A DNA stretch of 64,000 nucleotides, taken from contig QCMD01000001.1 of assembly GCA_003214055.1 (NCBI GenBank), positions 1-64,000 on the forward strand. Direction: 5' to 3'. The notes under the pieces are model-generated. The model ran no database searches and was not told the origin of the DNA. It saw nothing but the letters and a program-made list of their open reading frames with translations. Below are positions 59,328-64,000 of the stretch, piece by piece; the stretch's first letter is position 1, and the number at the start of each line of letters is the position of its first letter. Origin of the DNA: Prochlorococcus sp. AG-418-K17. Its GTDB lineage: Bacteria; Cyanobacteriota; Cyanobacteriia; PCC-6307; Cyanobiaceae. The translations under genes and the position numbers were made by a program.

Positions 59328-60914
59328 ATGAGTCAAAAATCTTTAAAAAAAGAAAGAGGTCCTGCAATACTAATACTAGACTTCGGATCTCAATATTCAG
59401 AATTGATAGCTAGAAGAATAAGAGAAACGAATGTTTTTTCTCTTGTTGTAAGTAATTGTATTTCAATTGATGAAATCGCCGATATCAATCCAAAAGGGAT
59501 TATTTTGAGTGGAGGTCCAAACTCTGTATATGATCAAGCTTCACCTAAATGTGATGTAGAAATTTTTAATTTAGGTATTCCAATTCTCGGAATATGTTAT
59601 GGCATGCAACTTATGGTTAAAGAACTAGGAGGTTCTGTTACTCCAGCTATTAAAAAAGCTGAATATGGCAGAGCACCTATAAATATTGATTTAGAAAGTG
59701 ATTTACTTTGTGATGTAAAAGATAAATCGATAATGTGGATGAGCCATGGAGATTCTATTAATTCTTTACCTCAAGGATTTAATAAAATTGCTCATACTGA
59801 AAATACACTTCATGCAGCCATTTCAAATAATTCAAATAAATTATTTGGTGTGCAATTTCATCCTGAAGTAATTCATTCAGAGTTTGGTATGCAAGTTATA
59901 AAAAACTTTGTTCACTCAATTTCTAATTGCGCTGCGGACTGGACTACTAATACTTTTTTGGAAGAGACGATACCGCAAATCAGGGAACAAGTTGGAAATA
60001 AAAAAGTTTTGCTTGCTTTATCTGGTGGGGTTGATTCATCTACTCTTGCTTTTCTTCTTTCTAAAGCTATTGGAGAAAATCTTACCTGCATGTTTATTGA
60101 TCAAGGTTTCATGAGGAAAGGTGAACCAGAATTTCTGATGGAATTTTTTGATAAAAAATTTCATATTAAGGTGGAATATATAAATGCCAGGGAAAGATTT
60201 ATTAAAAAATTAAAAGGAATAATCGATCCAGAAGAAAAAAGGAAAATTATTGGTCGAGAATTTATTAGAGTTTTTGAAGAGGAGAGTAATAGATTAGGAC
60301 CTTTTGAATATTTAGCACAAGGTACTCTTTATCCTGATGTTATCGAAAGTGCTGGTACAAATATAGATCCTAAAACCGGAGATCGAATTGCTGTAAAAAT
60401 CAAAAGTCATCATAATGTTGGAGGTTTACCAAAAGATTTACAGTTTAAATTGGTTGAGCCTTTGAGAAAACTTTTTAAGGATGAAGTGCGAAAACTGGGC
60501 AGTGCCTTAGGTTTACCTGATGAAATTATAAAAAGACATCCATTCCCAGGACCAGGATTAGCTATAAGAATTTTAGGGGAGGTAACGGATGAAAAACTAA
60601 ATTGTTTAAGGGATGCAGATTGGATTGTGAGAGATGAAATTAAAAAAGCAGGACTCTATAATGATATTTGGCAAGCTTTTGCTGTGTTGTTACCTGTTAA
60701 AACTGTTGGGGTAATGGGAGATAAAAGAACATATGCTTGGCCTTTAGTTATACGGTGCGTATCTAGTGAAGATGGTATGACAGCAGATTGGTCAAAAATT
60801 CCATTTGAGATTTTAACAAGAATTTCTAATAGAATAGTAAATGAAGTGGTTCAAGTTAATAGGGTCGTTTATGATATAACTAGCAAGCCTCCAGGTACAA
60901 TTGAGTGGGAATAG
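59328..60914 (+). CDS. guaA: GMP synthase (glutamine-hydrolysing)
   Basis: [45 protein letters not shown]-terminal KPPGTIEWE. Confidence 0.98.
60894..60914 (+). repeat. att-like core copy 1 (native guaA 3' tail)
   Basis: ggtacaattgagtgggaatag = GTIEWE*. Confidence 0.85.
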
Positions 60915-61034
60915 TTCATATATCAAGAACCTAGTTATAACTTAAAAAATCTTTTTTTCTAATTAAGAAATTTCTTTTTTCTTTTTTCGAAGATTAAGTC
61001 TATAACTGGGTTTATAAAGTTCCAAATTTTGCTT

Positions 61035-61055
61035 AGTTTGTCGCGAGTTTGTCGC
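61035..61055 (+). repeat. Arm-site-like tandem pair, left end
   Basis: AGTTTGTCGC at 61035-61044 and 61046-61055, 11-bp pitch. Confidence 0.7.
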
Positions 61056-61115
61056 AATCATTTTTTGTATTACGAAAACTCTTTATTATTGGATTGAATT
61101 TAACTTTGATATCTG

Positions 61116-61940
61116 ATGGAAACTGTTGTATCTATCTATGAATATCTCATTTCCTTAGTTAAAGATAATTCTAAAATTCCAATTTCTCTAAGAAATAAAT
61201 CAATTATTGGGACGACTCAAGATGATCCTTTTGATAATTGGGTAGAGGATGAACTTAGAAATGGTTTAGGCGCTAAATTTAAAATATTTCATTCTGGTAA
61301 ATTGCAAACACCAGATTTGGTAATTCACTCCACAGATTTAAATCAGTTTATTGGTATTGAGGTAAAAAAATTAAGTCAGCAAGATAATGGTTCAGATGGA
61401 AGAGGTTTAACTCTTGATTACAATAGTTGCTTACCTTGTGGCACAACTTTAATTAAATATCAGTCTGAAATAATAAAGATTCCCTGTTATTACCTTTTCG
61501 CTTTATTAGATAAGAAAAATGAAAATATTCTTACGATGTTGATAATGAATGGTGATTTTTTAAACTATGATTTTCAAATTCATAAAGAATCAAAGATCTC
61601 CAATTTTTCAGAATATGATCATGGACCTTATGGTGAAGGATCAGTCAGGCATCGAAAAATGTATACTTATCCCAATCCATTGAATTCAAAAATTAAATAT
61701 TTTTATCATAAATTTTTATTAGTCGATAAGGATTCAAATTTTAAATTGAGCAAAGATCAAAAAAATATAACTTCAAAAATAATTAGAACAGATCAATCTT
61801 CTCAAAATTTTAATTTTTTAGTCAGAGATGATTTAAGTCAAAATAATGCTTCTGAGATTGAATGTATTGAGGATATATTTGAAAATTGTAAAAAAAGATC
61901 GAAAAAAATAAGAACCGCTCCTATTTTTGAAATAGGTTGA
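61116..61940 (+). CDS. Putative Type II restriction endonuclease (PD-(D/E)xK-like)
   Basis: TPDLVIHSTDLNQFIGIEVKKL fits PD...ExK; immediately upstream of and co-oriented with a C5 methyltransferase (17-bp gap). Confidence 0.8.
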   Translation: METVVSIYEYLISLVKDNSKIPISLRNKSIIGTTQDDPFDNWVEDELRNGLGAKFKIFHSGKLQTPDLVIHSTDLNQFIGIEVKKLSQQDNGSDGRGLTLDYNSCLPCGTTLIKYQSEIIKIPCYYLFALLDKKNENILTMLIMNGDFLNYDFQIHKESKISNFSEYDHGPYGEGSVRHRKMYTYPNPLNSKIKYFYHKFLLVDKDSNFKLSKDQKNITSKIIRTDQSSQNFNFLVRDDLSQNNASEIECIEDIFENCKKRSKKIRTAPIFEIG

Positions 61941-61957
61941 AATTTTAACGGATATAT

Positions 61958-63082
61958 ATGTCCTCTTATTCTTTTCTAGGATTATTTTCAGGTGCTGGAG
62001 GTCTAGATTTAGGATTTGAGAATGCTGGTTTTCACCATATTCTTTCTAATGATATTTTGAAATGTGCAGTAGATACTATTAAGTTCAATAGACCATCATG
62101 GGATGTAGTCCATGAAGATGTAAAGAATTTCCATCCTAATAAAAAATTAAAACCTGATATTCTCCTTGCTGGATTTCCTTGTCAAGGATTTTCATTAGGA
62201 GGTCACAGAAAGTCTACCGACCAAAGAAATGAACTTTATAGAGAGGTAATTAGGATTGCTGATTCTTTGAAACCAAGAGTGATCGTTATGGAAAATGTTC
62301 TTAATCTAAGAACAATGATTCATCCTTTATCTTCGCAACCATTTGAAAAGCAAATAAAAGATGAACTTCAAAGTATTGGATATCAAGTAAGGTCAGATTA
62401 TTTGAAAGTTGCTAATTATGGAGTCCCACAAACGAGAAGAAGATTTATTTTGATTGCTTTCAGGGAAGAGGCATTTGGAGTGTTTGGTTTTCCTAAGCAA
62501 TCTTCATTAATGCCTGCTGAACCATTTTTAAAGGATTTTATAAATACAAATCAACCAGATCTTCCAAATCATTCTCCAGAATGGGGATTCAATTCCAGAG
62601 TTCATATACAAACTAATAATCCTATTAATGATTCTGATCCAATAATCCCAGTAAGATTAAGCAGAACCGCATCTGATGGTAATCCTATTAGAAATTTAAA
62701 GAATCCTTTTCCTGCTATAGATACTGGAACAATTTGGGGATGGGCGCAAGGAAATGTTGAGTGTAAAAGAGTTCAGAGAAAAGCAAGTGATCACAAGTAT
62801 CAAAGATCATTAGGTTCTCAAGTAAAACTTTGGAGACTAACTGCTAGTAGAATTAGAAGTTTCACTCCAAGAGAGTATGCGAGACTGCAAACTTTCCCAG
62901 ATACTTGGCAATTTCAAGGATCTAGTAAGAGAGATTTACAAATACAAATAGGCAATGCAGTTCCAGTTAATTTTGCAGAATCGATAGCGCGTCAAATTAT
63001 GCAGACTCTTGAATTTATTGATGGAAAAACCAAGTCTCTAGTAGTTCCAATAAAAGAAAGACAGATTCCTCTTGCTATGTAG
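61958..63082 (+). CDS. DNA (cytosine-5)-methyltransferase
   Basis: LFSGAGGLDLGFENAGF (I), AGFPCQGFSLGG (IV), VMENV (VI), QTRRRFILIAF (VIII), REYARLQTFPD (IX), QIGNAVPVNFAESIARQI (X). Confidence 0.97.
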   Translation: MSSYSFLGLFSGAGGLDLGFENAGFHHILSNDILKCAVDTIKFNRPSWDVVHEDVKNFHPNKKLKPDILLAGFPCQGFSLGGHRKSTDQRNELYREVIRIADSLKPRVIVMENVLNLRTMIHPLSSQPFEKQIKDELQSIGYQVRSDYLKVANYGVPQTRRRFILIAFREEAFGVFGFPKQSSLMPAEPFLKDFINTNQPDLPNHSPEWGFNSRVHIQTNNPINDSDPIIPVRLSRTASDGNPIRNLKNPFPAIDTGTIWGWAQGNVECKRVQRKASDHKYQRSLGSQVKLWRLTASRIRSFTPREYARLQTFPDTWQFQGSSKRDLQIQIGNAVPVNFAESIARQIMQTLEFIDGKTKSLVVPIKERQIPLAM

Positions 63083-63182
63083 TGCTAATAAATAAAAAAC
63101 TTATAATGATTGATATTAAATTTTATTTCTCTACAATTAGTTCAACAACATATGAAATTAAGTATAAAGGAATAACCTTATG

Positions 63183-63203
63183 AGTTTATCGTCAGTTTGT
63201 CGC
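63183..63203 (+). repeat. Arm-site-like tandem pair, right end
   Basis: AGTTTATCG at 63183 and AGTTTGTCGC at 63194-63203, same 11-bp pitch and orientation as the left pair. Confidence 0.65.
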
Positions 63204-63251
63204 ACTAAAATCATCCTCCAAACCTGTTGCTATGACAGGGTTTATTATGTT

Positions 63252-63272
63252 GGAACTATCGAGTGGGAGTGA
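63252..63272 (+). repeat. att-like core copy 2
   Basis: ggaactatcgagtgggagtga = GTIEWE*, synonymous variant of the guaA tail. Confidence 0.75.
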
Positions 63273-63310
63273 AAAGTAGGGTATAAACACATTCATAGTC
63301 TAGAAAAATT

Positions 63311-63331
63311 GGTTTCACACGGGTTTCACAC
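63311..63331 (+). repeat. Second arm-site-like tandem pair
   Basis: GGTTTCACAC at 63311-63320 and 63322-63331, again 11-bp pitch. Confidence 0.65.
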
Positions 63332-63391
63332 GAAATTTATGTCTTTATAAAACTCAATGATACCAATGGGTTTCAAGGGTCAAAATTGGGC

Positions 63392-63412
63392 GGTACTATT
63401 GAGTGGGAATAG
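63392..63412 (+). repeat. att-like core copy 3
   Basis: ggtactattgagtgggaatag = GTIEWE*, 20/21 identical to the native guaA tail. Confidence 0.85.
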
Positions 63413-63841
63413 TCCAAGAGTAAAAACCTAGTTGCAGCCTTAAGAATCTAGTCTCACCCAAAGATAAAAAAATTTTTTCAACCTATTTGCAATGGATTTT
63501 AGCGGGTCATGCTCAACTAAGTTTCACCAAAAGCATTGGAACTTTCTCTATAGAGAAATCGTATTAAAATAAATTTCTTTACGCTTTTATTTTGTATGGA
63601 TTTAGTTTTTATAAATGACTAACTTAAGATAATATCAATAGTTTAAGAAAGGTAGTTTTTATAAAAGAAGTGATGTTTATAATTTAAATTTTGTTTAACT
63701 TCAAAATTTATTATCACTAGCTTAAATAGTATTTATTTAAAATAAAAAATTTAATTTTTAAATCAAATGATTAATGTTTGCAAATATTAAATTGTGAATG
63801 TTTAATCTTTTGACTTAGATTGAGTCAAAACTAATATTTAT

Positions 63842-64000
63842 ATGAATACAAGTTGGGATATTTTACTGTCTGAGTTTCGTAAACTTGGTGGAATAGCAGA
63901 TAATGTATTTCAAAAAGAGGGCGAAAATGGTCGTGGTATTTTTCCAGTTAATCCAAGCCTAAAGGCAAGAATTTTTACTCCATCTAAATTAATGATTAAA
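63842..64000 (+). CDS. Partial ORF of unknown function, truncated by window end
   Basis: MNTSWDILLSEFRKLGGIADNVFQKEGENGRGIFPVNPSLKARIFTPSKLMIK... open to the window end. Confidence 0.55.
   Translation, partial: MNTSWDILLSEFRKLGGIADNVFQKEGENGRGIFPVNPSLKARIFTPSKLMIK

What the first reader, a model, noticed from the sequence alone, without database searches (positions are those of the whole stretch)
61035..63331. Three pairs of 10-bp direct repeats at identical 11-bp pitch around the guaA-tail cores
AGTTTGTCGC x2 (61035, 61046), AGTTTATCG/AGTTTGTCGC (63183, 63194) and GGTTTCACAC x2 (63311, 63322) are all in the same orientation, all spaced 11 bp start-to-start, and share a loose RGTTTNNCRC pattern. 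They lie about 40-120 bp from the nearest cores. This geometry resembles the tandem arm-type binding sites of tyrosine recombinases. The first two pairs bracket the R-M genes; the third has a different sequence, as if read by a related but distinct integrase.
Basis: partly seen in the sequence, partly recalled or inferred. Interest (0 to 1): 0.75.

Follow-up and report, generated by a model that had tools for sequence, protein, structure and literature searches.

The report
Integrase arm sites of guaA islands
Beside the guaA gene of this ocean cyanobacterium sit short paired DNA repeats that mark the two ends of small mobile gene cassettes; across related genomes each cassette carries its own version of the pair at both ends, like a lock for one particular integration enzyme, although most cassettes have lost or never had that enzyme.

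Summary
The window is Prochlorococcus. In 169 distinct guaA loci, 95 carry a direct repeat at exactly 11-bp pitch within 130 bp of the guaA stop, against at most 4 at any other lag. None of 42 empty guaA sites has one, whereas 57 of 72 occupied sites do. Pairs sit at fixed places: about +37 and/or +98-120 after the left guaA-tail core, and -60 to -102 (mostly -82 or -91) before the right core. The motif differs between elements but matches at the two ends of one element in 61 of 66 cases, against 18% by shuffling. All 11 complete guaA-linked integrases found, in Prochlorococcus and Synechococcus-like genomes, have such pairs; the arm motif tracks the integrase N-terminal region. These are best read as arm-type sites of a tyrosine-integrase family specific for the guaA 3' end. 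In the window, pairs 1 and 2 are the two ends of one 2.3-kb integrase-less restriction-modification element; pair 3 is a 'solo-arm' remnant joining ends of two classes. Only 5 of 266 Prochlorococcus genomes carry the integrase, so most elements are integrase-less. Tandem guaA islands and arm sites are known kinds; this element-specific arm code is a new variant. Binding is not shown.

The parts
59328..60914 (+). guaA (GMP synthase); its last ~21 bp are the attachment core
   Evidence: guaA homologues
60894..60914 (+). core 1 (guaA 3' end, GGTACAATTGAGTGGGAATAG), left boundary of element 1
60927..60940 (+). conserved box (GAACCTAGTTATAA; consensus AAACCCAGTYATAG) at fixed +12 from the core, shared across arm classes
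   Evidence: score >=10/14 in 80 of 107 elements, nearly all at position 11-12
61035..61056 (+). pair 1: left arm-type pair of element 1 (AGTTTGTCGC-G-AGTTTGTCGC)
61116..61940 (+). cargo: putative restriction endonuclease (274 aa, no Pfam match), element 1
   Evidence: role inferred from its place before the methylase gene
61958..63082 (+). cargo: C-5 cytosine DNA methylase (374 aa), element 1
   Evidence: PF00145 E=5e-65
63183..63204 (+). pair 2: right arm-type pair of element 1 (AGTTTATCGTC-AGTTTGTCGC), same motif as pair 1, -69 from core 2
63230..63243 (-). inverted copy of the conserved box (AAACCCTGTCATAG on the - strand) near the right core
63252..63272 (+). core 2 (GGAACTATCGAGTGGGAGTGA): right boundary of element 1, left boundary of mini-element 2
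63311..63332 (+). pair 3: single arm pair (GGTTTCACACG x2) of the 119-bp mini-element 2; chimeric, left half of the GTTTCAC class, right half of the -82 class
63392..63412 (+). core 3 (GGTACTATTGAGTGGGAATAG): right boundary of mini-element 2, left boundary of element 3
63413..63565 (+). left end of a third element, related to the integrase-bearing element of L171, with decayed arm pair (AGTCTCACCC at 63450 kept, second copy lost)
63842..64000 (+). start of a cargo gene of element 3 (331 aa, continues beyond the window); host synteny resumes about 2 kb past the window end

Best explanation
The paired 11-bp repeats are arm-type binding sites (P and P' arms) of tyrosine integrases that insert elements at the 3' end of guaA. 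Each element is bounded by copies of the guaA tail, whose GAGTGGGA centre is shared by all and is the likely crossover region. Its own motif is repeated in pairs just inside both ends, and the N-terminal region of its cognate integrase is inferred to read that motif while the catalytic part works on the shared core. Elements with different arm motifs therefore use one attachment site and pile up in tandem. Most carry only cargo (restriction-modification and other genes) and no integrase, so they are inferred to move, if at all, through an integrase supplied by another element with matching arms, or together with a neighbour. In the window, pairs 1 and 2 are the two arms of one such restriction-modification element; pair 3 is a leftover single arm from a deletion between arms of two elements; core 3 begins a third, decayed element. 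Shown by sequence: geometry, matching of the two ends, association with occupied sites and with integrases, covariation. Inferred: protein binding, present mobility, trans-action.
For: Lag specificity: 95/169 loci at lag 11 within 130 bp of the guaA stop, 0-4 at every other lag; upstream of distal cores 83/144 at lag 11, at most 3 at other lags. Occupancy: 0/42 empty, 9/12 mini, 57/72 occupied sites. Fixed positions and 61/66 left-right motif match at >=10/11, against 18% shuffled and 2/34 for neighbouring elements. 134 distal core copies, all in guaA orientation, none in the upstream control DNA. The integrase gene lies just 3' of guaA in all complete cases, in Prochlorococcus and Synechococcus-like genera, each with pairs at the same offsets. 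Arm motif against integrase N-terminal identity: Mantel r=0.70, p=1e-4; partial correlation controlling for the catalytic part 0.48-0.70, p<=0.0011. Catalytic residues and fold as in Tn1549 and lambda integrases.
Against: No binding or excision data. The N-terminal region is modelled with low confidence and matches no Pfam arm-binding domain; only a weak DUF6538 match in 4 of 10. With the arm register fixed, the catalytic part also correlates with the motif (partial r 0.45, p 0.004), and only 11 integrases are available. Several common motif classes (GTTTGTCAC, GTTTTACGTG, GTTTCCCTCA, GTTTGTCGC) have no cognate integrase in the genomes searched. About 40% of distal cores have no recognisable pair upstream, partly through decay.
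Confidence: 0.9

Rival explanations
1. The pairs are iterons or operator sites of the element's replication initiator (the full elements carry an HUH-type Rep-like protein and a helicase) rather than integrase arm sites.
For: Direct repeats near a replication module are typical of iterons; a REP_ORF2-G2P-like protein and a DUF5906 helicase are encoded in full elements.
Against: The same motif is paired at both ends, at fixed distances from the recombination cores, including in elements without any Rep gene; motif identity follows the integrase N-terminal region. The Rep gene lies kilobases away from the pairs in L161.
Confidence: 0.04
2. The pairs bind an excisionase, a host architectural protein or a regulator rather than the integrase.
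For: Direct-repeat pairs of about one helical turn also suit Xis-type proteins; a further conserved box (AAACCCAGTYATAG, inverted at the other end) shows that other factors may bind near the core.
Against: An excisionase is classically needed on one arm only, and a host factor would not change motif from element to element; here both ends change together and track the integrase.
Confidence: 0.05
3. The repeats are incidental low-complexity or slippage products in AT-rich intergenic DNA.
For: The genome is AT-rich and tandem repeats are cheap.
Against: Single lag, roughly 150-fold enrichment next to cores, absence from all 42 empty sites, matched ends.
Confidence: 0.005
4. The window's elements are purely fossil: the arms are real but nothing moves them now, and the resident single-copy tyrosine recombinase (387 aa, next to a gene whose product resembles cobO) is unrelated. 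This concerns present mobility and is compatible with the best explanation of what the repeats are.
For: No guaA-type integrase in this assembly; only a conserved 387-aa recombinase. Pair 2 has 2 of 10 mismatches, element 3's arms are decayed, mini-element 2 is a deletion chimera. Assembly is 81% complete.
Against: Pair 1 is perfect; tandem arrays differ between close relatives and empty sites are common, so the locus turns over.
Confidence: 0.4

Closest known systems
guaA 3'-end genomic islands/ICEs/IMEs (Song et al. 2012, as cited in PMC7775301; ATE-1, Brucella IncP island and Gisul2 listed in PMC5704250)
   Same: Insertion at the guaA 3' end, direct repeats containing GAGTGGGA, tyrosine integrase gene next to guaA.
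   Different: Those are reported with P4-type integrases plus AlpA (PMC7775301); here the integrase shows no Pfam domain besides PF00589, elements are 0.1-9 kb, mostly without integrase, and have diversified matched 11-bp arm pairs.
Arm-type sites of lambda, Tn916/Tn1549 and related integrases (arm-binding-domain tyrosine recombinases, PMC8138268)
   Same: N-terminal region plus catalytic domain; short repeats inside both element ends near the core; Tn1549 and lambda integrases are among the closest solved folds.
   Different: Here one attachment site is shared by many motif classes and the pair geometry is constant across a whole genus and beyond; the N-terminal fold is not established.
Cis-mobilizable elements (CIMEs) and tandem accretion; tandem ssrA islands of Dehalococcoides (PMC3146451, PMC5704250)
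   Same: Tandem integrase-less elements bounded by copies of one host-gene tail.
   Different: Dehalococcoides islands use serine recombinases; no element-specific arm code was seen described in the passages read. Mobilisation not shown here.
Tycheposons of Prochlorococcus (described in PMC10872708; original paper not held)
   Same: Same host genus, site-specific integration with a tyrosine recombinase, cargo turnover.
   Different: Described at tRNA genes; the 30 strongest Prochlorococcus PF00589 loci fetched show no comparable 11-bp pairs; the guaA integrase is a separate family.

Membership tests
Arm-binding-domain tyrosine integrase system | Integrase with the catalytic residues of the tyrosine recombinase family | tested here: met
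   PF00589 in 10 of 10; conserved R, K, HxxR and Y in the alignment
Arm-binding-domain tyrosine integrase system | N-terminal arm-binding domain (three strands and a helix) | tested here: inconclusive
   A ~110-aa N-terminal region with strand/helix pattern exists, but the AlphaFold model is below pLDDT 50 there; only weak DUF6538
Arm-binding-domain tyrosine integrase system | Repeated arm sites inside both ends of the element, distinct from the core | tested here: met
Arm-binding-domain tyrosine integrase system | Integrase binds the arm sites | not testable with these tools
   Only covariation between N-terminal region and motif
guaA 3'-end genomic island | Flanked by guaA-tail direct repeats containing GAGTGGGA in guaA orientation | tested here: met
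guaA 3'-end genomic island (P4-type) | P4-type integrase with AlpA regulator | tested here: not met
   No DUF4102 or other P4 arm domain in the integrases; AlpA was not among the listed Pfam hits of the cargo
CIME (cis-mobilizable element), for the window's element 1 | attL and attR kept, no integrase or transfer genes | tested here: met
CIME (cis-mobilizable element), for the window's element 1 | Can be mobilised by a related element | not testable with these tools
   No experiment
Tycheposon | Integration at a tRNA gene | tested here: not met
   No tRNA in the window; site is guaA

The most novel reading that the evidence does not exclude
A genus-wide 'arm code': many mutually distinct integrase specificities share one attachment core at guaA and differ only in an 11-bp arm word, so that a large population of integrase-less cargo cassettes is sorted into mobilisation groups by that word and moved in trans, with solo-arm mini-elements as deletion scars, much as solo LTRs mark lost retroelements.
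Probability: 0.5. Interest if true: 0.75.

Novelty: new variant of a known kind. Interest (0 to 1): 0.62.

Why it matters
Arm specificity of integrases has been worked out in a few model systems. Here a natural series of at least ten arm motifs with one fixed geometry and one shared core, plus eleven integrases whose N-terminal regions vary with them, offers material for learning how arm recognition is encoded. It also marks guaA as a busy cargo-exchange site in the most abundant photosynthetic genus, much of the recognisable cargo being restriction-modification, and gives a sequence signature by which integrase-less mobile cassettes can be delimited to the base.

Tried and rejected
Relatives of the window's restriction-modification genes by DNA in 60 genomes: nothing useful. 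guaA integrase in IMG/VR and in the phage collection: none. Own-genome integrase: only the conserved single-copy 387-aa recombinase. The idea that arrays avoid two elements of the same arm class was tested and dropped (16 of 71 pairs against 14.5 expected). The same pair geometry at other, non-guaA integrases: absent in 30 Prochlorococcus loci, present in some Synechococcus-like loci but not above the other lags.

Full report
WHAT WAS CLAIMED. Three pairs of 10-bp direct repeats at 11-bp pitch lie near guaA-tail cores at 61035-63331 and resemble arm-type sites of tyrosine recombinases.

OBSERVATION. The sequence is as described. Pairs 1 and 3 are exact; pair 2 has 2 mismatches in 10. In the whole 64-kb window only one other exact 10-mer repeat at lag 11 exists, and the joint pattern occurs in the 1.27-Mb assembly only here. 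The window is Prochlorococcus: guaA homologues of 88-91% identity come from Prochlorococcus single-cell genomes.

COMPARATIVE TEST. guaA loci were collected by protein search and by taking stretches from genomes; 169 distinct ones remained after removal of duplicates. In the 130 bp after the guaA stop, a repeat of at least 8/9 at lag 11 is present in 95; lags 6-10 and 12-20 give 0-4; about 2 are expected from other windows of the same loci. Positions cluster at +35-40 and +89-120. Upstream of distal cores the figure is 83 of 144 at lag 11 and at most 3 at any other lag. Where the host gene that normally follows guaA starts within 150 bp (empty site) no pair is found (0/42); mini-islands 9/12; larger islands 57/72. 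Density is 3.27 pairs per kb near cores and 0.022 elsewhere in the fetched loci. The extra pattern hits that were fetched with flanks all have guaA just upstream on the same strand (10 of 10; one further contig ends before guaA but has a core).

ANATOMY. Distal copies of the guaA tail (134 at up to 3 mismatches) all point the same way and none is seen in 469 kb of upstream control DNA. Between successive cores lies one element. Each has an arm pair about 37 bp after the left core and/or another at about +98-120, and a pair usually 82 or 91 bp before the right core. For 66 elements with both ends readable, the best 11-mer identity between left and right is at least 10/11 in 61; shuffling partners gives 18%; the right end of one element against the left end of the next gives 2 of 34. 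In L212 three tandem elements carry three motifs in turn (GTTTCACGTG, GTTTCCCGTA, GTTACACGTG), each matched left and right. A further box, AAACCCAGTYATAG, stands at +12 after the left core in most elements whatever the motif, and in inverted form near the right core in many; it may bind a shared factor. The core itself has imperfect inverted halves around the GAGTGGG centre (direct reading).

INTEGRASE. A 455-499-aa tyrosine integrase (PF00589) lies just 3' of guaA in L161, L162, L170, L171 and L096. The family is found in only 5 of 266 Prochlorococcus genomes, always at guaA, and in Synechococcus-like genera of the same family, again next to guaA, with pairs at the same offsets. Four of the full elements share a Rep-like protein and a 314-319-aa protein, and some a DUF5906 helicase. 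Across 11 integrases, similarity of the arm motif follows identity of the N-terminal ~110 residues (Mantel r 0.70, p 1e-4). Controlling for the catalytic part leaves 0.48 (strict register) or 0.70 (one-base shift allowed); the reverse partial is 0.45 or -0.05. The pair L350/L353 is telling: 65% identical in the catalytic part, 36% in the N-terminal part, different arm motifs; L170/L351: 54% and 65%, nearly the same motif. The catalytic fold matches Tn1549 and lambda integrases; the N-terminal fold is not established.

THE WINDOW READ AGAIN. Element 1, 60915-63251: left pair 61035, putative endonuclease and cytosine methylase, right pair 63183 with the same motif, -69 from core 2. Mini-element 2, 63273-63391: 119 bp, one pair (63311), left half like the GTTTCAC class (L113), right half like the mini-element of L089. 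Mini-elements of 117-119 and 126-127 bp recur in other genomes; in most their length equals the left offset plus the right offset of that class, which is what a deletion from the left to the right arm pair would leave. Element 3 from 63413: left end aligns with L171 and L094, second arm copy lost; host synteny resumes about 2 kb beyond the window. No guaA-type integrase is in this assembly (81% complete).

MECHANISM, SHOWN AND INFERRED. Shown by sequence: geometry, matched ends, occupied-site association, integrase association, covariation. Inferred: the integrase binds the pairs; the catalytic part acts in the shared GAGTGGGA centre; integrase-less elements move through a matching integrase in trans or with a neighbour; mini-elements are deletion scars.

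KNOWN AND NEW. guaA 3' ends as island sites with GAGTGGGA repeats are known (PMC7775301, citing Song et al. 2012; PMC5704250), as are CIMEs and tandem accretion (PMC5704250, PMC3146451) and arm-binding domains (PMC8138268). No paper in the held library was found that describes guaA islands in Prochlorococcus; the original tycheposon paper is not held, so a mention there cannot be excluded. The element-by-element arm code on one shared core is the new part, hence 'new variant of a known kind'.

Noticed in passing
L161-L313, elements listed: Recognisable cargo of guaA elements includes type I, II and III restriction-modification parts, HNH and resolvase-family proteins; a TPR/methyltransferase family is the most frequent (38 of 208 ORFs).
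   Followed up: partly
window 60927-60940 and 63230-63243; 107 elements: Arm-class-independent box AAACCCAGTYATAG at +12 from the left core, inverted near the right core; possible site of a shared accessory factor.
   Followed up: partly
window 63546-63566; L171, L170, L349, L350, L351, L352 about 140 bp after the core: Palindrome-like TCTCTATRGAGAAGTCG follows the second arm pair in many elements; function unknown, perhaps an operator or promoter element.
   Followed up: no
L330/L359 (11754, 11814, 833), L360 (1910, 7324): Other, non-guaA integrases of picocyanobacteria also have 11-bp-pitch repeat pairs nearby in some cases (GGGTAACG, AGTTGAAAATG), though the count is not above other lags.
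   Followed up: partly
G000:C2:31817-32233 (L001) and most genus members: A single-copy 387-389-aa tyrosine recombinase with an N-terminal extension is present in most Prochlorococcus genomes, next to a gene whose product resembles cobO; its role is unclear.
   Followed up: no
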